Below, piece by piece: positions 22,197 through 64,000 of a stretch of DNA of 64,000 nt. How positions within the stretch are numbered: the stretch's first letter is position 1; every line of letters begins with the position of its first letter. The DNA is taken from assembly GCA_014799805.1 (NCBI GenBank), contig JAAVHJ010000023.1, positions 1-64,000 of the forward strand. Direction: 5' to 3'. The notes below the pieces were generated by a model, which saw nothing but the letters and a program-made list of their open reading frames with translations, did not search any database and was not told where the DNA came from. A program made the position numbers and the translations under genes. This stretch comes from Ruminococcus sp. (GTDB taxonomy: Bacteria; Bacillota; Clostridia; Oscillospirales; Ruminococcaceae).

Positions 22197-25100
22197 TTAT
22201 AATTTAAAATAAATATCAGGTAAAATAATAGCAGCGTCTTTCCAAGTGCAAATAAATCTTATTTTTGCGTCATAAAGCTTATAACCAGCAGATATAATAT
22301 CTTTAATTTTTTTATAACAAGCTGATGAAAATTGCAATACTGGTAATTTATTTCCATGAGAACATAAACACAGCGTATTTGCAATGACGCAAAGGTGCAT
22401 ACCACTTCGCAAACCTAGGATAGTTCTTAGTTTGTCCTTAAAAAAATCTAAAAATACATCTTTATGTGATAACTGCATAATTAATTCAGATGGTTTTTGA
22501 TAAGATTTTAAATCTGTTTTATAAGAACATGCTATATTTTTTAACGAATCTAATAAATTACCTGTATAATGAATATGTAAAAGTGATTTTGCCCTTGTAA
22601 TGCCTACATAAAGTTTTCTTTTTTGTTCATCAGTCGCAAGATTTATATTATCCAGCATGAGAAATACATTATCAAATTCTCTGCCCTTGGATTTATGCAT
22701 AGTTGAAATTGTAATAATATCTTGTTCACTTTTATAAAAATCTTCTATTTTAGATTCCTGCAAGAACATCATAAAATCAGTAAAATATTTTTTTTCATTA
22801 GTAATTGCAAATGTAGTAAGTGCCTCAAGAATCACAGGCAGACATTCACTTTCAGAATATATTCTTTTCAGCCTATCAATGGCATAATTCCATTTTTCAT
22901 CACTAATCACAGGTGCTATATTATCTGATTTTAATACTCTTAAAAAATATTGAATTTCTATAATATGATACATATCAAATTCATCACTAGACTGAATTAA
23001 TTTAGCTGAAATCTTTTTCTGTTTTAGAAGTCCCAGTATCATTAAAGTTTCTCGGTTAGTATTAGTCAAAATACAAGTTGTCCCGACAAGATTTGTTGCC
23101 ATAATATCATTCACAATAGCTGTTTCTATATGCATTCCAGTATGTTTAATTAATTTCACTTCCCCAGCTTGATGAGAAACAGGTAAAATATTTTCTGTTT
23201 TCATTCTGTTGGAAATGCTTTTCACAAATGCATTTGCAAAAGCAATAATATTTTGACAGCTCCGATAATTATCAATCAAGGAATATTGCACAGCATAATA
23301 ATTAGTAATCAATGATTTTAAATATTTAGAATCTGAGCCACGGAATTGATAAATATTTTGGTCATCATCACCAACTGCAATAATACGCATCGTTTCATTT
23401 TTTTCCAGTAAAGCTTCTATTAATTGAAATTCATTTTCATCCATATCTTGTGCTTCATCAATGACTAACACAGTTTTTGTAATTTTTCCTAAATCGGCTT
23501 CACCATTGCGAATTAAATTGCCTGCGTCTTTTACAATACTATCGGAATCTTTAATATTTCCAATTTTTCCTAATATATCAAAACAATAAGAATGAAATGT
23601 CTTAATTTCGACATAATTAGACGCATTGCCAATTAATCTATGAAGTCTTTGTTTAAATTCCATTACGGCAGCCCTTGAAAATGTTAACATAAGTAGCTGT
23701 TCGTGTTTTACATCTTCCAGAAGTAACAAAGACGCTAATTTATGAACTAACACTTTTGTTTTTCCACTTCCTGGGCCTGCAGATACAACAATATGTTGAT
23801 TTTCGTTATCATGAATAATTTGAAGTTGTCTTTCTGACAAAGTATGAAATAATTCATGATATTTTGCAGGGGTAATATTTATTTCAATTTGCTTTCGCCG
23901 TTCATCTGAAAAATAACGAGACAGAAATTTTTTATAATCCATTTGGAAATAATCATTCACAAATTGAATTGCTTTAGAATTATCTTGTATCATGATATTG
24001 GCATATTCTCCTACAATATGAATTTGTGCAATTCTCTGTTTATAAAATGCTTCCATTTGTTTATAATCATCTTTTTTATATTGAATTCTATCATTTAGTT
24101 CAAGTCTTTTTATGTGCATCGCATTGTATAAAACTAAAAAACCTCCCTCCAGTTTAATAGCATTAATTTTAGAAAGAAATAATAATGCTTCTTCAATTTC
24201 ATCTGTAGAAATAGTTGTTGCAAATTTTTTTTGATAAGCATTTAAAATCTCAAGAATTGAAAATCCAACAAGTACTTCCTCTTTTGTTTCAAAATCAAAA
24301 CTACTATAATTATTATGATGAAATAAATAGCGAATAATAAATTCTGCAATTTGATAACTAGCTGTTCTTTTCTTGATAATTATTTCAATTTCAAATTTTG
24401 GTTCAATTATCACTCGGTTTGTAAGAGAATCCTGTTGTTTCTGAATATAACTACGAATCGTCCAATAATAAAATAAAGTTTTAATTGCATGAATAGAACT
24501 TTTTATACCCTTTGCAAGAGCAGACTCGTTTAATTCTTTATAATTCATGCAAAAATTATCTTTGGAAATATATGCTAATATAAATTCTTCGAGTGCCTGA
24601 AACTTATTCAATATCGAAAGTGATTTATTTTCCGTATTTGTTTTAAAAATATATGCTGTTAAATCTTTTTCATCTGCAAGCAAGCCATCTTCTTTCATCA
24701 TTTGCACAGAACGAATAATATTCCTTTTTTCAATTCCAAGACGGTCAGCAAGATAATCAATTCTGGATTCTGCGTCAGCATTGCTAGCATTGGCAATATT
24801 TTTGCTAGAAATAAGTGCGTGAATAATTCGCTTGGCATCTTTTTTTTCTTGTTCATTAGTAATGCGTAAAGACTTATCAATCCATTCAGATGCTTCAGTC
24901 ATATTTTTTGCAAGAATACTTGTAGCATAAATTCTTGGAACATTTTTTCCCCTTCTAAGATAGCCAGCATTTTCCAATGCTTGCAAAGCAGTTTTCACTC
25001 TTGTTTCTATATCTACAACACTTTCATCCCAACCAGCTTTTCTTGCGATTTCTAGCGGAGAGCAACATACTTCCGAACGTTTTCTCGTCAAATTTATTAC

Positions 25101-26963
25101 TGCTCTCCAAACTTGCTGTATTTCATTTTTATTAAGTTTTGTTTGATTTAGTAATATAAAATGCTTGTCCAAATCTTCTTGGTTAAATAATATATAACAT
25201 TCTGCTTCTAATGTCTCATTACGACCGGCACGCCCAGCTTCTTGGACATAATTTTCAAGAGAATCAGAAATATCATAATGAATCACCAGTTTTACATTAG
25301 ATTTATCAACACCCATTCCAAAAGCAGATGTTGCAACAATAATCTGAATTTTATCATTCATAAATGCTTCTTGATTTTCTTCTTTTTCGGTACTTTCCAT
25401 TTTACCATTAAAAGCCCTTGCTTTAAATCCGTCATCAGTTAATTTTTTTGCAAGTTCTCGTGTACGTTTTGTTCTTGAAACATATACAATCGTAGGACAA
25501 TTTTTTTGTTCAATCAGGGAACGCATTGTATCATATTTTTGACTATCTTTTTCTTGATATAATACTTCATAGCGAAGATTTGTTCTTGATGCATGAGACA
25601 CAAATAATGCAAGTTCAATATCTAATTTATTTTTAAAATATGCTTTAATATCTTGAATTACTTTTTGTTTTGCTGTTGCTGTAAAACAAGATACAGGAAT
25701 TTTACAGCCATCGCCTTTTTTTTCTTGCAATTGTCTGATAAAATCGCCAATATATAAATAATCTACTCTAAAATCTTGTCCCCATGCAGAAAAACAATGT
25801 GCTTCATCAATGACAAAACGGGCAATATGCCTTGCTAAAAAAAGTCTTTCTATCGTAACAGAACGCAATGATTCAGGTGAAATATATAAAATAGACGCTA
25901 TACCAGATTCTACACGTTCAATTGCTTCTGCTCTTTCAACAGGGCTTAATAAGCCATTAATTGTTACGGCTTCGGCAATGCCTTTTTTTTCTAAATTATC
26001 AACTTGGTCTTTCATTAAAGATTGCAAGGGCGATATAACTACTGTTAAAGCACGTTCTGTTTCACCAGCCATTAGTGCGGGTATTTGAAATGTAAGGGAT
26101 TTTCCCCCGCCAGTCGGAAATATTGCAAGCAATGATTCATGATGAATCGCAGAATTAATAGCATTTGCTTGTAAAGGCTTGCCACCATAGTTTCTAAAAT
26201 CTTGATATCCAAAATATTGATTAAGATATTTTTTCGGATTTAATCTTGATTGGCAGTAATTGCAATTTTCATTGCCACAAGAAGTATTTCTTAATATTCT
26301 AAGAATATAATTCACTTTCGGATAATTAATCAGTACCCATTTTGGAATTAAAGAATGTTTTTCTGTTGCAGATAATAATGCAAAACAATATGCAAGTTCT
26401 ACTGGTGATTCTGTTATTAATGGCATAATAGGCACATTTTCACAAATTTTATTTGAAAATAACTCTAAAATCATTGTTTTTAAATCGCCAGAAGAAAATT
26501 TATCTGAAAAATCTAAATTTATATATGAAAAAAATCCAGAAAAATATTTATTTTCTTTTAAAAGCATATAATATATAAATTTTAATCTTTCGTCTAATTC
26601 TTGAAAGGCATTGATTTCGTCATAGAATAAATGCATTGCCTTAATCGCATCATTCAAAGGATTATTTAATTCATCACTTTGTAATTTATCATCTTTTAAA
26701 AGCGAATGATAAGGCTTATTTGGAAATACCAAGGGTGAAAGATATAATGTATCAATACAAATAATTTCATCAGGTATTTTAATATATTTTATATCATGTG
26801 AAATGATATTATGGCCACATAAAAACGTTACATCAGATATAAATTCCTGAAATTCATTTGCAGAACCTGTATGAATTGTTTTATAATTTTCATTAATTGC
26901 CCCAAAATCATAGGCTTTATGTTCTTCAGGATTTACTTCAGTATCTATAAATGCTATTTTCAT
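22197..26963 (-). CDS. DEDD exonuclease-like / RecQ helicase / UvrD helicase fusion (1588 aa)
   Basis: Exonuclease-like FIDTEV...GHNIISHDIKYI...NDAIKA; CGNENCNYC zinc-binding-like; RecQ AIFPTGGGKSLTFQIPA, VIDEAHCFSAWGQDFR, QEAGRAGR; UvrD VSAGPGSGKTKVLVHKLASLL, VIDEAQDMDENEFQLIEALL, DDDQNIYQFRGSD, TMHKSKGREFDNVFL, LYVGITRAKSLLHI. Confidence 0.95.
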   Translation of the reverse strand: MKIAFIDTEVNPEEHKAYDFGAINENYKTIHTGSANEFQEFISDVTFLCGHNIISHDIKYIKIPDEIICIDTLYLSPLVFPNKPYHSLLKDDKLQSDELNNPLNDAIKAMHLFYDEINAFQELDERLKFIYYMLLKENKYFSGFFSYINLDFSDKFSSGDLKTMILELFSNKICENVPIMPLITESPVELAYCFALLSATEKHSLIPKWVLINYPKVNYILRILRNTSCGNENCNYCQSRLNPKKYLNQYFGYQDFRNYGGKPLQANAINSAIHHESLLAIFPTGGGKSLTFQIPALMAGETERALTVVISPLQSLMKDQVDNLEKKGIAEAVTINGLLSPVERAEAIERVESGIASILYISPESLRSVTIERLFLARHIARFVIDEAHCFSAWGQDFRVDYLYIGDFIRQLQEKKGDGCKIPVSCFTATAKQKVIQDIKAYFKNKLDIELALFVSHASRTNLRYEVLYQEKDSQKYDTMRSLIEQKNCPTIVYVSRTKRTRELAKKLTDDGFKARAFNGKMESTEKEENQEAFMNDKIQIIVATSAFGMGVDKSNVKLVIHYDISDSLENYVQEAGRAGRNETLEAECYILFNQEDLDKHFILLNQTKLNKNEIQQVWRAVINLTRKRSEVCCSPLEIARKAGWDESVVDIETRVKTALQALENAGYLRRGKNVPRIYATSILAKNMTEASEWIDKSLRITNEQEKKDAKRIIHALISSKNIANASNADAESRIDYLADRLGIEKRNIIRSVQMMKEDGLLADEKDLTAYIFKTNTENKSLSILNKFQALEEFILAYISKDNFCMNYKELNESALAKGIKSSIHAIKTLFYYWTIRSYIQKQQDSLTNRVIIEPKFEIEIIIKKRTASYQIAEFIIRYLFHHNNYSSFDFETKEEVLVGFSILEILNAYQKKFATTISTDEIEEALLFLSKINAIKLEGGFLVLYNAMHIKRLELNDRIQYKKDDYKQMEAFYKQRIAQIHIVGEYANIMIQDNSKAIQFVNDYFQMDYKKFLSRYFSDERRKQIEINITPAKYHELFHTLSERQLQIIHDNENQHIVVSAGPGSGKTKVLVHKLASLLLLEDVKHEQLLMLTFSRAAVMEFKQRLHRLIGNASNYVEIKTFHSYCFDILGKIGNIKDSDSIVKDAGNLIRNGEADLGKITKTVLVIDEAQDMDENEFQLIEALLEKNETMRIIAVGDDDQNIYQFRGSDSKYLKSLITNYYAVQYSLIDNYRSCQNIIAFANAFVKSISNRMKTENILPVSHQAGEVKLIKHTGMHIETAIVNDIMATNLVGTTCILTNTNRETLMILGLLKQKKISAKLIQSSDEFDMYHIIEIQYFLRVLKSDNIAPVISDEKWNYAIDRLKRIYSESECLPVILEALTTFAITNEKKYFTDFMMFLQESKIEDFYKSEQDIITISTMHKSKGREFDNVFLMLDNINLATDEQKRKLYVGITRAKSLLHIHYTGNLLDSLKNIACSYKTDLKSYQKPSELIMQLSHKDVFLDFFKDKLRTILGLRSGMHLCVIANTLCLCSHGNKLPVLQFSSACYKKIKDIISAGYKLYDAKIRFICTWKDAAIILPDIYFKL

Positions 26964-27256
26964 AAATTTACCTCACTTTTATTTATTAAATTCATTATTC
27001 TGATTATACTATTTTAAATTTTAAATAATGCCCTTAATCAAACATACATTTTTGATTTGAATTTGTTTGATAATAATAATTAATACTTCTTTCAGATACA
27101 ATATGATTTATTTTTATTATAGCATAGTATCAGGAATTTTACAAGTATTTGGATTAAAATTATAAAATTACTCAGTCAGATACAAAGCATGACGGAGTGA
27201 TTTTATTTTAGGATTTTGAAATAATTACTTTCTTAATCTTTCATAAATAATATTAC

Positions 27257-27413
27257 CTACCCGATAACCAATTTTATCATTTCTGAGTCTGAACACATCT
27301 TTATAAAAAAATCTTCATTCTGCTCATAATGTGCCTCCACCATTTCAGGAAAATTCTTTTTTTGCTTCTGCCTCAAACTTTGTTTTTTTGTTTTTCCATT
27401 CACGTCCGAACAT
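27257..27413 (-). pseudogene. possible decayed small ORF (frameshifted)
   Basis: Minus strand MFGREWKNKKTKFEAEAKKEF- then with a one-base shift PEMVEAHYEQNEDFFIKMCSDSEMIKLVIG*. Confidence 0.3.
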
Positions 27414-27501
27414 GTGAATTGAAAAAATTTAACAAAAATAGATAAAAAGACGTTTTATGTCATTGTTTAAACATATTAGAATAATAGCGAGGTGATAAAA
27501 A

Positions 27502-29205
27502 ATGATATTAAATCAGGCAGATAATATTATGTTAGGCAATCAGGAAGTGCAGAAAGTATATCTTGGCAGTCAACTTGTTTGGGAGAGAACTAAATCTCTT
27601 GATATGACAAAAATCGCTATGATAAAACTTGATAACAATTATCAAGAAACAAGCGATATACAATATTTTGATACGATTTTAGATACCAAAAATGCATTAG
27701 ATTCTGATACCAAAAATCTGTATAAAATCATTATCAGCGAAAATTCTGGTATTACAGAAATTTCAGAAAGTGCATTCTATAGTTGCAGAAATCTTATATC
27801 TGTTGTAATTTTAGGCAGTGTGACAAATATAAAAAAATACGCATTTGGTAATTGTACCAATTTAACAGAGATTAGTATCTCAAATAGCGTGACAGCAATT
27901 GGAGATTCTAGCTTTTTTGGTTGTAAAAATTTAGTATCTATTACAATTCCTGATACGATTACAAGCATTGGAAACTATGCTTTTCAAAATTGCACAGGTC
28001 TAACAAATTTTAATATTCCAAATGGTGTGACAAGCATTCAGCAATCTGTTTTCTCTGGATGTACTGGTCTTACAAATATTGTAATCCCTGATAGTATCAC
28101 AAGTATTGGCAATAATGCTTTTCAAAATTGCACTGGTTTAATGGCAATTTCCATTCCAGACAATGGGATAACGATTGGAAGTGCTGTATTCAGCAACTGT
28201 ACCAAACTGACGGAGATTACAATTCCTGACAGTGTGACAAGCATTGGAACAAATCTGTTTCAAAGTTGTACAAGTCTTACCAATGCTACACTTTCAAGTA
28301 ATCTTACAAGTATTTCAGAACGCATGTTTTATAGCTGTACACGTTTAGCAAGTGTTACCATTCCGGAAAAAGTTACGGTTATTGGCGGATCTGCATTCTC
28401 TGGTTGCACAAGTTTGACTAGTGTCACAATTCCAGATACTGTAACAAAGATTGAAGGTTCTGCTTTTTATAATTGTACTAATCTAACAGAAATCGTAATT
28501 CCAGATAACGTGACGGATATTGGTGGTTCGGCTTTTTATGGATGTACAAAACTAGTAACTATCAATATTCCAGATAATATTACAATCATTAGAAATTCTA
28601 TATTCCGAGCTTGTGAAAGTTTAACTAATATTGTAATTCCAAACGGTGTCACATATATTGAAGCTTATGCTTTTTATAACTGTATAAAATTAACATCTGT
28701 GAATATTCCAAATAGTTTAAGAGATATGGGGAGTTATGCTTTTGCTGGCTGTATACAACTAAGTGGTGATATTATAATTCCAGAGGGATTACACTATATC
28801 CCAGACTACGCTTTCTATAGTTGCAGAATCACAAGCATGGCTCTTACAAGCAGTGACATCATATCCATTGGAAAATATGCTTTCTACCGTTGTCTAATAC
28901 TGACATCTATTGCACTTCCAGACATTGCAACAGGCAATGCAACAGCAATTGGAGATTATGCTTTCTATGGTTGCAGAATCACTAATATTACTATTCCAAG
29001 TGGCATAACCAGCATTGGAGCAAATGCTTTTTATGCTTGCATAAATTTACAAAATATTACTATTCCAAGCAGTGTAACCGGTATTGGAAATGCCGCTTTT
29101 GGAAGCTGTAATAGGATGACGAATATTACTATCCAAAAATCAGAAAACAGTATTTCTGGTTCTCCATGGGACGCACCAAATGCAGAAATTATTTGGACAG
29201 AATGA
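27502..29205 (+). CDS. BspA-like LRR_5 repeat protein with phage-structural-like termini, no signal peptide
   Basis: ~20 tandem repeats xxIGxxAFxxCTxLTxITIPDSVT; N-terminus MILNQADNIMLGNQEVQKVYLGSQLVWER and C-terminus SGSPWDAPNAEIIWTE; RBS GAGGTGAT. Confidence 0.9.
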   Translation: MILNQADNIMLGNQEVQKVYLGSQLVWERTKSLDMTKIAMIKLDNNYQETSDIQYFDTILDTKNALDSDTKNLYKIIISENSGITEISESAFYSCRNLISVVILGSVTNIKKYAFGNCTNLTEISISNSVTAIGDSSFFGCKNLVSITIPDTITSIGNYAFQNCTGLTNFNIPNGVTSIQQSVFSGCTGLTNIVIPDSITSIGNNAFQNCTGLMAISIPDNGITIGSAVFSNCTKLTEITIPDSVTSIGTNLFQSCTSLTNATLSSNLTSISERMFYSCTRLASVTIPEKVTVIGGSAFSGCTSLTSVTIPDTVTKIEGSAFYNCTNLTEIVIPDNVTDIGGSAFYGCTKLVTINIPDNITIIRNSIFRACESLTNIVIPNGVTYIEAYAFYNCIKLTSVNIPNSLRDMGSYAFAGCIQLSGDIIIPEGLHYIPDYAFYSCRITSMALTSSDIISIGKYAFYRCLILTSIALPDIATGNATAIGDYAFYGCRITNITIPSGITSIGANAFYACINLQNITIPSSVTGIGNAAFGSCNRMTNITIQKSENSISGSPWDAPNAEIIWTE

Positions 29206-50274: not shown

Positions 50275-50665
50275 TCTTCGTCCACATCATGGGCTATGTA
50301 TTGCATTTTTTGAGGGCAGGGGCTATGATGATAATTTCACACAGCATATGAAAAAAATGATTTCTATTTTGCAGGAACAAAATCCAAAGATTCAACTTGT
50401 ATCAGAATCAGATATCATTTGCTCGCATTGCCCACATCAAAAAAACAAGCTTTGTGACAGCGATTGTAAAGTACAACGCTATGACAAAGCTGTTTTAAAA
50501 GTTTGTAATTTGCAAGAAAATCAAGTTCTTCACTGGTCTGAATTTTGTGAGATTATTTATAAGAAAATTTTAAGTAGCAAGCCGATTTATGAAATTTGTG
50601 TGAATTGCCAATGGTTAGCTATTTGCCAAAAAAAGAAAATTGAAAATTATAAATTTTTTAAATAA
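50261..50665 (+). CDS. DUF1284 domain protein
   Basis: LRPHHGLCIAFFEGRGYDDNFTQHM and Cys-rich C-terminus (CSHCPH, CDSDCKVQRYD). Confidence 0.88.
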   Translation: MLKFNLRPHHGLCIAFFEGRGYDDNFTQHMKKMISILQEQNPKIQLVSESDIICSHCPHQKNKLCDSDCKVQRYDKAVLKVCNLQENQVLHWSEFCEIIYKKILSSKPIYEICVNCQWLAICQKKKIENYKFFK

Positions 50666-52164
50666 TATTTTTTTGTCAGCACCAAATCAAATATAGTAAT
50701 CATCTCATCATGATTGAAATCTACGGCTTGCCAGTTGGGCAAATTGCCTGAACCTAGTAACCATTTTTGCAATACAATAATATCTAATATATTAAAATCA
50801 CCGTCTTTGTTGGCATCTCCTGTGCAAATTTCTGTAATTGGCTTTTCAGGAGCTGTTCCAAGAGAAACAAAATTTCTGTGATATGTTTCAGCATAGGCTT
50901 GTGCTGTGGAATTATCATATCCATAGATAGTAGCCGTATCAGAAATTGTGTATTCATTATCATAAATTTCACATTCTGGATTCTCAATTGTGACAGATAT
51001 TAAAGCATCACAACCATAAAAAGCATGAGAGTCAATTGATGTCACACTATCTGAGATTATAACAGATTCTAAAGCAAAACAATAGGAAAAAGCATAATTT
51101 CTAATTTTTTTCACACTGTCTGGAAGTATAATAGATTTTAAAGCATAGCAACTACCAAAAGCACTATCTTCAATTGTTATCATACTATCTGGAATGACAA
51201 CAGATGTTAAACCAGTATAGGAAAAAGCCAATCTTTCAATTGTTGTGACGCTATTTGGAATGACAACCGATTCTAAAGCTGAACAATAAGAAAAAGCATG
51301 ATTTTCAATTATTGTGACACTGGCTGGAATTGTGACAGATGTTAAAGATTCGCAACCATAAAAAGTATTCTCTTTGATTATTGTCACACTATTTGGAATA
51401 ACAATTGCTTCTAAAGCAGAACAATAAGAAAAAGCAAGATTTTCAATTGTTGTGACACTGGCTGGAATTGTGACAGATATTAAAGAAGTACAACCATGAA
51501 AAGCAGAATTTCCGATTGCTGTCACACTATCTGGAATAATAATTTCTTTCTGTTCACATGTTGTTCCATCAATTAAAATTCCATTAATAATTACAAGCGG
51601 ATTTTCATTTCTTTTTATTTCCAACCATGAAGTTCCACTAAAAGCATCCACTCCGATTGTTGTCACACTATCTGGAATGATAATAGATTCTAAAGCATAA
51701 CATCCCAAAAAAGCACTTTCTCCGATTGCTATCACACTATCTGAAATTGTGACAGATGTTAGGGATTCACAATGAAAAAAAGCACTATCCCCAATTGTTA
51801 TTACACTATCTGGAATTGTAACAGATGTTAAAGTGCTACAAGAACTAAAAGCATAATTTCCAATTGTTGTTACACCATCTTCAAGTATAATTTTTTTTAT
51901 ATTTTCATGTAAATGATACCAACAAGATTCTGCATAATCCCAGTTTTTCATTGCACCAGTCCCACTAATTGTTAGCGTTTCTGTAGATTCTTCAAAGTTC
52001 CAAGTTAAATTTTCTCCACATGTCCCCGAAGTAACGACTTCTAAATTTTCTGCGCTTGCAAAAATAAAATGCATTGACGGAATCTGTTCAGCTATCGGCA
52101 AACCATTTACACACAAACATAATAATGCTGTCATACTGGCAAGCAAAGCTTTTAATTTTCTCAT
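50647..52164 (-). CDS. secreted BspA-like LRR protein with C-terminal type I dockerin
   Basis: Signal peptide; >10 LRR_5 repeats; C-terminus GDANKDGDFNILDIIVLQKWLL...VDFNHDEMITIFDLVLTKKYYL with two dockerin Ca-loops. Confidence 0.93.
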   Translation of the reverse strand: MRKLKALLASMTALLCLCVNGLPIAEQIPSMHFIFASAENLEVVTSGTCGENLTWNFEESTETLTISGTGAMKNWDYAESCWYHLHENIKKIILEDGVTTIGNYAFSSCSTLTSVTIPDSVITIGDSAFFHCESLTSVTISDSVIAIGESAFLGCYALESIIIPDSVTTIGVDAFSGTSWLEIKRNENPLVIINGILIDGTTCEQKEIIIPDSVTAIGNSAFHGCTSLISVTIPASVTTIENLAFSYCSALEAIVIPNSVTIIKENTFYGCESLTSVTIPASVTIIENHAFSYCSALESVVIPNSVTTIERLAFSYTGLTSVVIPDSMITIEDSAFGSCYALKSIILPDSVKKIRNYAFSYCFALESVIISDSVTSIDSHAFYGCDALISVTIENPECEIYDNEYTISDTATIYGYDNSTAQAYAETYHRNFVSLGTAPEKPITEICTGDANKDGDFNILDIIVLQKWLLGSGNLPNWQAVDFNHDEMITIFDLVLTKKYYLKNL

Positions 52165-63108: not shown

Positions 63109-63137
63109 ATTATAGCATATTTCAGCAAAAATGTCAA
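63109..63137 (-). promoter_or_regulatory. sigma-A promoter of uORF-corC unit
   Basis: Minus strand TTGACA-17-TATAAT. Confidence 0.8.
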
Positions 63138-63151
63138 GAGCTGTAAAACAC

Positions 63152-63180
63152 TTGACAAAAGTAAATAAAAATAGTATAAT
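63152..63180 (+). promoter_or_regulatory. sigma-A promoter of the LRR gene
   Basis: TTGACA-17-TATAAT. Confidence 0.85.
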
Positions 63181-63227
63181 ATATATTATATTATTAAGCG
63201 AAAATCAATTATTAGGGAGAATAAGTG

Positions 63228-64000
63228 ATGAAAAAAATAATTTTTATAATGGCATTCTGTTTACTGGGTGTGCCGTTAATGACACAGACTATTCAGGAAA
63301 ATCCGATTATTTCCTATGCTGCAAAAGTCACCCGTGAAAATTTAACTTTTATGGAATATGAAGATGAAGTGGTAGTTACTGACTGTGAATTTCTTGCAGA
63401 GGGGGAAATTGTGATTCCTTCTGAAGTCAATGGCAAGCCTGTAACAAGTATTAATTCTAGTACATTTCAATCTTGTTATAAAATTACCAGTGTAATCATT
63501 CCAGACACTGTCACCAGTATTGGTTGGTGGGCATTTAAAGGGTGTAAAAGTTTAGAAATAATTTCTATTCCAGAAACAATAACATATATCGGACGGGATG
63601 CCTTTTCAAATTCGCTATGGCTGGAAAATCAGAAGCAAGAAAATCCGCTTGTGATTGTGGATAATATTCTTGTTGATGGAACGGCATGTGAAGGGGAAGT
63701 AATAATCCCTGAAGGTGTGCATACTATCAATACTCATGCTTTCTATCAGAATGAAACAATTACTTCTGTAGTAATTCCAGATACTGTCACCAGTATTGAA
63801 GATTGTGTATTTCAGGGCTGTATCAATTTAGAAAATATTCCTATTCCTGATACGGTTGTTTCTATTGACAATCAGGCATTTTCTGACACACTATGGTTAG
63901 AAAATCAGCAAACTGAAAATCCGCTTGTAATTATCAATGGTATTCTAATTGACGGAACGGCTTGCGAAGGGGAAGTTATCATTCCAGAAACTGTACATAC
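63228..64000 (+). CDS. secreted BspA-like LRR protein, partial (continues past window)
   Basis: MKKIIFIMAFCLLGVPLMTQTIQENPIISYA signal peptide then LRR_5 repeats (SVIIPDTVTSIGWWAFKGCKSLE); frame open to base 64000. Confidence 0.9.
   Translation, partial: MKKIIFIMAFCLLGVPLMTQTIQENPIISYAAKVTRENLTFMEYEDEVVVTDCEFLAEGEIVIPSEVNGKPVTSINSSTFQSCYKITSVIIPDTVTSIGWWAFKGCKSLEIISIPETITYIGRDAFSNSLWLENQKQENPLVIVDNILVDGTACEGEVIIPEGVHTINTHAFYQNETITSVVIPDTVTSIEDCVFQGCINLENIPIPDTVVSIDNQAFSDTLWLENQQTENPLVIINGILIDGTACEGEVIIPETVH

What the first reader, a model, noticed from the sequence alone, without database searches (positions are those of the whole stretch)
22197..26963. 1588-aa single-polypeptide exonuclease-RecQ-UvrD fusion
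One uninterrupted ORF carries a DEDD-type exonuclease-like N-terminus, a Cys cluster (CGNENCNYC), a full RecQ SF2 helicase and a full UvrD-like SF1A helicase with Walker A/B, QxxR-like and motif VI sequences. It stands alone, flanked by intergenic DNA. Two helicases of different superfamilies plus a nuclease suggest a recombination/repair or anti-phage role. Similar fusions exist in databases to my knowledge, but their function is poorly described.
Basis: partly seen in the sequence, partly recalled or inferred. Interest (0 to 1): 0.75.

Follow-up and report, generated by a model that had tools for sequence, protein, structure and literature searches.

The report
Mobile exonuclease-RecQ-UvrD fusion enzyme
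This bacterium carries one very long gene that joins a DNA-trimming enzyme to two different DNA-unwinding motors; the gene hops between distant bacteria as a single unit, is kept intact by selection, and has no described function, though its habits resemble those of anti-virus or mobile-DNA processing genes.

Summary
In detail: window 22197-26963, on the MINUS strand, is one intact 1588-aa ORF. From N to C: a DEDD 3'-5' exonuclease fold, a four-cysteine (probably zinc) site, a RecQ core, a string of winged helices, a complete UvrD-type SF1A helicase and a C-terminal domain with no match. In 92 full-architecture homologues the catalytic residues of all three enzymes are essentially invariant, and every domain is under purifying selection. 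It is not housekeeping: the genome has separate RecQ and UvrD/PcrA-type genes, about 10 of 38 same-genus genomes carry the fusion, siblings lack it at the equivalent site, and the gene tree conflicts with taxonomy. Copies 85-93% identical mostly sit in unrelated surroundings, so the gene moves alone. Role is open. Some relatives lie beside defence genes (Hma, type I R-M, CRISPR-Cas) and five siblings have an adjacent AAA_13 ATPase gene (one decayed); but the window is no defence island, and defence enrichment was not clearly above an imperfect control. Best bet: a mobile DNA unwinding/degrading enzyme for anti-phage/anti-element defence (about 0.5), closely rivalled by repair/recombination. 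A RecQ-associated exonuclease cluster was listed in 2014; I found no functional study. New variant of a known kind.

The parts
22197..26963 (-). Whole gene: 1588-aa DEDD exonuclease - C4 - RecQ - winged helices - UvrD - CTD fusion (P0001); stop codon 22197-22199
26589..26963 (-). Residues 1-125: DEDD 3'-5' exonuclease domain (Asp7, Glu9, Asp57, Asp105; the usual His/Tyr general base is Asn/Ser)
   Evidence: AF2 model pLDDT 92.4; Foldseek DinG/ExoX; profile match 9l8b; invariance
26229..26588 (-). Residues 126-245: helical linker with four near-invariant cysteines (Cys174, Cys229, Cys234, Cys237), probable zinc site
   Evidence: alignment of 92 homologues; helices in model; metal itself is inferred
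25134..26228 (-). Residues 246-610: RecQ SF2 helicase core (GGGKS Lys288, DEAH Asp386/Glu387, motif VI Arg578/Arg581); no RQC zinc-binding or HRDC domain follows
23859..25133 (-). Residues 611-1035: about four winged-helix-like units plus a helical bundle
   Evidence: AF2 model pLDDT 86.4; Foldseek hits include winged-helix proteins but are weak; weak HTH Pfam hits
22554..23858 (-). Residues 1036-1470: UvrD-type SF1A helicase (Lys1068, Asp1169/Glu1170, Gln1202, Arg1234, Arg1457)
22200..22553 (-). Residues 1471-1588: C-terminal domain of unknown fold, conserved through the family (dN/dS 0.12-0.18 in the pairs where it could be estimated)
   Evidence: no convincing PDB profile match; dN/dS
26964..27501 (-). 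538-bp upstream intergenic region; promoter-like site 27144-27116, promoter-like sites in the region not clearly above shuffled expectation

Best explanation
A horizontally mobile, single-polypeptide DNA-processing machine. SHOWN: a DEDD exonuclease-like domain, a four-cysteine site, a RecQ core, tandem winged-helix-like units and a UvrD core in one frame, with catalytic residues conserved and purifying selection on every domain; the gene is sporadic, extra to housekeeping RecQ and UvrD-type genes, and moves as a lone gene between families and phyla. INFERRED: the winged helices and C4 site hold a DNA end or junction; RecQ and UvrD, both 3'-to-5' motors in their families, open the duplex; the exonuclease trims the 3' strands they expose. 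Two same-polarity motors tied together suit a fork, D-loop or other branched structure better than RecBCD-style tracking from an end. MOST LIKELY ROLE (inferred): unwinding and destroying replication or recombination intermediates of incoming phages or plasmids, sometimes together with an AAA_13 zinc-hook ATPase acting as sensor or loader.
For: Intact ORF and domains. Conserved catalytic and Cys residues in 92 homologues; dN/dS 0.03-0.29 where it could be estimated. Separate RecQ, UvrD/PcrA-type and AddA-like genes elsewhere in the genome; nine of ten other carriers also have a separate RecQ. Present in about 10 of 38 genus genomes and 5 of 120 Bacillota. ABC operon to the left conserved in siblings without the gene beside it. 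Same-genus copies rejected as one clade, p-AU 0.006; Bacillota and Bacteroidota interleaved. Genes 85-93% identical with unrelated flanks. AAA_13/PDC-S06 ATPase in 6 of 38 genomes, all among the 10 with the fusion, Fisher p 7.6e-5, adjacent in five of them, on either side. Hma beside the pair in G026, HsdS and an OLD-like ATPase in G022; type I R-M in Allochromatium, CRISPR I-D in Thiothrix; McrBC genes among neighbours.
Against: The window copy is not in a defence island and its genome lacks the ATPase. Most annotated plasmid copies have no defence gene within 10 kb. PADLOC matches: 125 families among 148 nearest neighbours, 45 among 104 distal, 52 among 148 random genes; both the near set (RecQ neighbours) and the control (one CRISPR locus) are distorted. 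The exonuclease lacks the usual His/Tyr, so its activity is uncertain. The ATPase partner was not seen outside the genus, and the co-occurrence test ignores shared ancestry. No experiment.
Confidence: 0.5

Rival explanations
1. A DNA repair/recombination enzyme, a bacterial analogue of WRN: it dissolves D-loops and stalled forks and trims 3' ends. It spreads because it helps hosts or mobile elements survive damage or replicate large replicons, not because it fights phages.
For: Domain logic matches WRN, which disrupts D-loops and degrades the invading strand (PMC2653227), and DinG, a DEDD exonuclease plus helicase linked to replication stress (PMC12525004). Mostly solitary. Often on large plasmids. 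Operon with another RecQ in L023/L024.
Against: Sporadic, fast-moving distribution next to existing RecQ and UvrD-type genes; defence neighbours in several lineages.
Confidence: 0.35
2. A module that serves the mobile elements themselves (plasmid or prophage replication, transfer, anti-restriction).
For: Found on plasmids beside par/rep genes and in nine IMG/VR viral contigs.
Against: Mostly in genomic contigs with ordinary, ever-changing neighbours and no constant mobile-element partner; no phage record of 50,697 holds a match to at least 80% of it.
Confidence: 0.1
3. Ordinary housekeeping RecQ or UvrD that happens to be fused.
For: Automatic annotation calls it RecQ family helicase.
Against: Separate housekeeping copies, patchy presence, conflicting tree, no RQC/HRDC domains, equivalog cut-offs missed.
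Confidence: 0.03

Closest known systems
WRN (human RecQ with N-terminal DEDD exonuclease)
   Same: Exonuclease then RecQ core in one chain; RecQ core matched at about 1e-38
   Different: WRN exonuclease is DEDDy, with RQC and HRDC domains and no UvrD (established knowledge); here the catalytic Tyr/His is Asn, RQC/HRDC are absent, and winged helices plus a UvrD helicase follow
Bacterial DinG (DEDD exonuclease + SF2 helicase)
   Same: Best Foldseek match of the N-terminus is S. aureus DinG, probability 1.00
   Different: DinG has an XPD-like helicase, not RecQ, and only one motor
RNase H-like cluster F.14: RecQ helicases with PF13482-type exonuclease (PMC3985635, 2014)
   Same: Predicted 3'-5' exonuclease domains attached to RecQ helicases; may include this family
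   Different: The passages read give no UvrD half, distribution or function; the Pfam scan found no PF13482 match here
RecBCD / AddAB
   Same: Two motor cores plus nuclease in one machine
   Different: Multi-subunit, PD-(D/E)XK nuclease, RecD motor of opposite polarity (established knowledge); here one chain, DEDD nuclease, SF2 plus SF1A motors
DpdF (Dpd system) and PsyrT
   Same: Best PADLOC matches, but only to the RecQ core
   Different: Matches do not extend to exonuclease or UvrD; DpdF cut-off missed (219.7 against 550)
Gabija GajB
   Same: UvrD-type helicase in a defence setting
   Different: Needs GajA; none beside the window gene; match limited to the UvrD core

Membership tests
RecQ family (broad) | RecQ-type SF2 core motifs above the family cut-off | tested here: met
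   TIGR00614 287.8 against 219.8 bits; K288, D386, E387, R578, R581 invariant or nearly so
RecQ (bacterial equivalog) | Full-length RecQ score, RQC zinc-binding and HRDC domains | tested here: not met
   TIGR01389 320 against 640.2 bits; no RecQ_Zn_bind, RQC or HRDC match in Pfam
UvrD/PcrA (equivalog) | Score above PcrA/UvrD cut-off | tested here: not met
   PcrA 121 against 911.2; UvrD 102 against 1144.45 bits; SF1A motif residues are present
DEDD 3'-5' exonucleases | Four conserved acidic residues in the DEDD fold | tested here: met
   D7, E9, D57, D105; fold match DinG/ExoX, with weak E-values
DEDDh / DEDDy subclasses | His or Tyr general base before the last Asp | tested here: not met
   Position 100 is Asn (84), Ser (7) or Lys (1); position 101 Asn, Asp or Ser
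DEDD 3'-5' exonucleases | Actual 3'-5' exonuclease activity | not testable with these tools
   needs biochemistry
WRN | Exonuclease + RecQ + RQC + HRDC order | tested here: not met
   exonuclease and RecQ present; no RQC/HRDC match, extra UvrD
DpdF | NF041063 cut-off and Dpd gene neighbours | tested here: not met
   219.7 against 550 bits; no Dpd genes among window neighbours
Gabija | Adjacent GajA OLD-TOPRIM gene | tested here: not met
   window neighbours are ABC transporter and LRR genes
RecBCD/AddAB | PD-(D/E)XK nuclease and partner subunit | tested here: not met
   no such Pfam match; stands alone
Anti-phage defence system (any) | Demonstrated protection from phage | not testable with these tools
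   context only

The most novel reading that the evidence does not exclude
A new single-gene (optionally two-gene, with an AAA_13 zinc-hook ATPase) anti-phage or anti-plasmid system in which one polypeptide with two 3'-to-5' motors of different superfamilies and an atypical DEDD nuclease takes apart replication or recombination intermediates of invading DNA.
Probability: 0.4. Interest if true: 0.8.

Novelty: new variant of a known kind. Interest (0 to 1): 0.52.

Why it matters
At least 80 species-level genomes in a capped scan, and probably many more, carry this enzyme, usually annotated only as 'RecQ family ATP-dependent DNA helicase'. It is a natural fusion of an SF2 and an SF1A helicase with a nuclease, kept intact while moving alone across several phyla. 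That makes it a tractable single-gene test of whether such fusions are defence or repair machines, and of how two motors of the same polarity work together. Carriers include cultured strains such as Allochromatium vinosum DSM 180, Desulfospira joergensenii DSM 10085 and Flavobacterium and Pedobacter isolates.

Tried and rejected
Conserved neighbour search over all loci: no gene family near the fusion in more than 7 loci. Repeats marking an insertion: only short AT-rich matches that look like chance. Pfam for the N-terminus: nothing convincing. Profile searches of the middle and C-terminal regions against PDB: nothing significant; Foldseek on the middle region is weak and only suggests winged helices. 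PADLOC control: the random set happened to contain a CRISPR locus, so the comparison is weak. Bacteroidota prevalence could not be sampled. Predicted coordinates are not readable in the Python box, so the role of invariant His86 could not be checked. Rfam: only a tRNA in the window. Literature: no paper describing the function was found in the held library.
Full report
What is there. The ORF 22197-26963 lies on the minus strand and encodes 1588 aa without interruption. Its RecQ core (about 246-610) and UvrD core (about 1036-1470) are unambiguous. The N-terminal 125 residues have no Pfam match on the window protein, but a model built on 58 homologues (pLDDT 92.4) resembles DEDD exonucleases: S. 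aureus DinG first (probability 1.00, E 5e-3, TM 0.44), with ExoX and family-B polymerase exonuclease domains further down. A profile search weakly hits a DEDDh exonuclease across the whole active site. The four acidic residues are kept in 91-92 of 92 homologues, yet the His/Tyr that completes DEDDh/DEDDy sites is Asn or Ser; an invariant His86 might substitute, which I could not test. Residues 611-1035 look like several winged helices. The last 118 residues have no known match.

It is functional and constrained. dN/dS between six pairs of homologues is 0.03-0.29 in every domain where it could be estimated, including exonuclease, cysteine and C-terminal regions. The Walker A, DEAH/DEAQ, QxxR and motif VI residues checked in both helicases are essentially invariant in 92 full-architecture homologues.

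It is accessory. The same genome has a separate 605-aa RecQ, a 797-aa UvrD/PcrA-type gene and a 1252-aa AddA-like gene (the last two names are my reading of size and match position). Six of the 37 genus genomes, the window's included, have full-length copies and four others have pieces, some at contig ends and some decayed. Across Bacillota 5 of 120 sampled genomes had the N-terminal domain. Nine of ten carriers examined also have a separate RecQ at 36-43% identity; Desulfospira showed only more distant helicases.

It moves alone. The ABC-transporter operon left of the window gene is conserved in siblings at about 65-84% DNA identity, but where flanking sequence is available the fusion is not beside it. 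The gene tree groups the window with Clostridia of other families, places G003/G031/G035 elsewhere and G014 further off; one clade of same-genus copies is rejected (p-AU 0.006), and Bacillota, Bacteroidota, Lentisphaerota and a desulfobacterium are interleaved. Most pairs of genes 85-93% identical share essentially no flanking DNA; the clear exceptions are two Flavobacterium genomes, and L023/L024, which share a RecQ gene upstream. The gene also occurs on plasmids and in contigs classed as viral, though no phage record holds a match to at least 80% of it.

Context. The window's neighbours are a hybrid-cluster (prismane) protein gene, an ABC transporter operon, BspA-type LRR and DUF5067 genes, and a TetR/MMPL pair; a PADLOC scan of 43 window ORFs matched only five models and no recognisable system. 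Elsewhere the picture is mixed. Five siblings have an AAA_13 ATPase (PADLOC candidate PDC-S06) adjacent: downstream in G003, G031 and G026, upstream in G022, and in the decayed locus of G001; G035 has one on another contig. Its presence coincides with the fusion in the genus (6 of 6 within 10 of 38; Fisher p 7.6e-5, not corrected for ancestry). In G026 the pair is followed by HmaA/HmaB; in G022 it is near a type I specificity subunit and an OLD-like ATPase. Distant relatives lie near type I R-M and CRISPR I-D, and one follows a WYL regulator. But most plasmid copies have unremarkable neighbours, and PADLOC hits near versus far versus random genes (125 families/148, 45/104, 52/148) do not separate cleanly.

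How it probably works (inference). RecQ and UvrD families translocate 3'-to-5' (established knowledge). Tied together and acting on opposite strands they would converge on or diverge from a junction, so a fork, D-loop or gap is the natural substrate; the exonuclease would trim the released 3' strand, as WRN does at D-loops (PMC2653227). Winged helices and the C4 site would grip the junction. Whether this serves defence (about 0.5), repair (about 0.35) or the mobile elements themselves (about 0.1) is not settled.

Known or new. In 2014 a cluster of RecQ-associated RNase H-like exonucleases (F.14) was listed without function (PMC3985635). I found no paper in the held library on the whole architecture. 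I file it as a new variant of the helicase-nuclease kind: a RecQ-family core in the broad sense, but not a member of RecQ sensu stricto, UvrD, WRN, DpdF or Gabija, each of which failed a defining test.

Noticed in passing
L138:9383-11188, L143:2641-4449, L144:6002-7861, L145:5463-7270: An AAA_13 ATPase of about 600 aa with a CPYCQQ zinc-hook-like motif (PADLOC candidate PDC-S06) lies directly next to the fusion in siblings, downstream in some and upstream in others, the two kinds only about 36% identical.
   Followed up: yes
L143:5745-11998: An Hma pair (HmaA 1667 bits, HmaB 1152 bits) follows the fusion-ATPase pair in sibling G026.
   Followed up: partly
L145 and L146 (G001, G009): Decayed, fragmented copies of the fusion (and of its ATPase in G001), suggesting gain and loss.
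   Followed up: partly
L023:9020-11059, L024:9258-11303: A RecQ of about 680 aa lies 9-10 bp upstream of the fusion on the same strand in two Bacteroidales-labelled genomes.
   Followed up: no
L093:9125-10261: A gene that by eye looks like SbcD (calcineurin-like nuclease) starts 56 bp downstream of the fusion.
   Followed up: no
L140:5597-6175, L098:6849-7628, L075:6754-7287: A small protein family (193 aa in L140; no Pfam or PADLOC match) lies beside the fusion in at least three loci.
   Followed up: partly
L110, L105 and L115: Divergent members: the Aliarcobacter copy (L110) has lost three of the four cysteines, the viral-contig copy L105 has Cys in place of Asp105, and the Pseudanabaena copy (L115) lacks the cysteine cluster in the alignment.
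   Followed up: no
window 27502-29205, 50647-52164 and 63131-64000: Several BspA-type LRR or LRR-like genes in the window, one directly upstream of the fusion; an LRR-like gene is also next to the fusion in G014.
   Followed up: no
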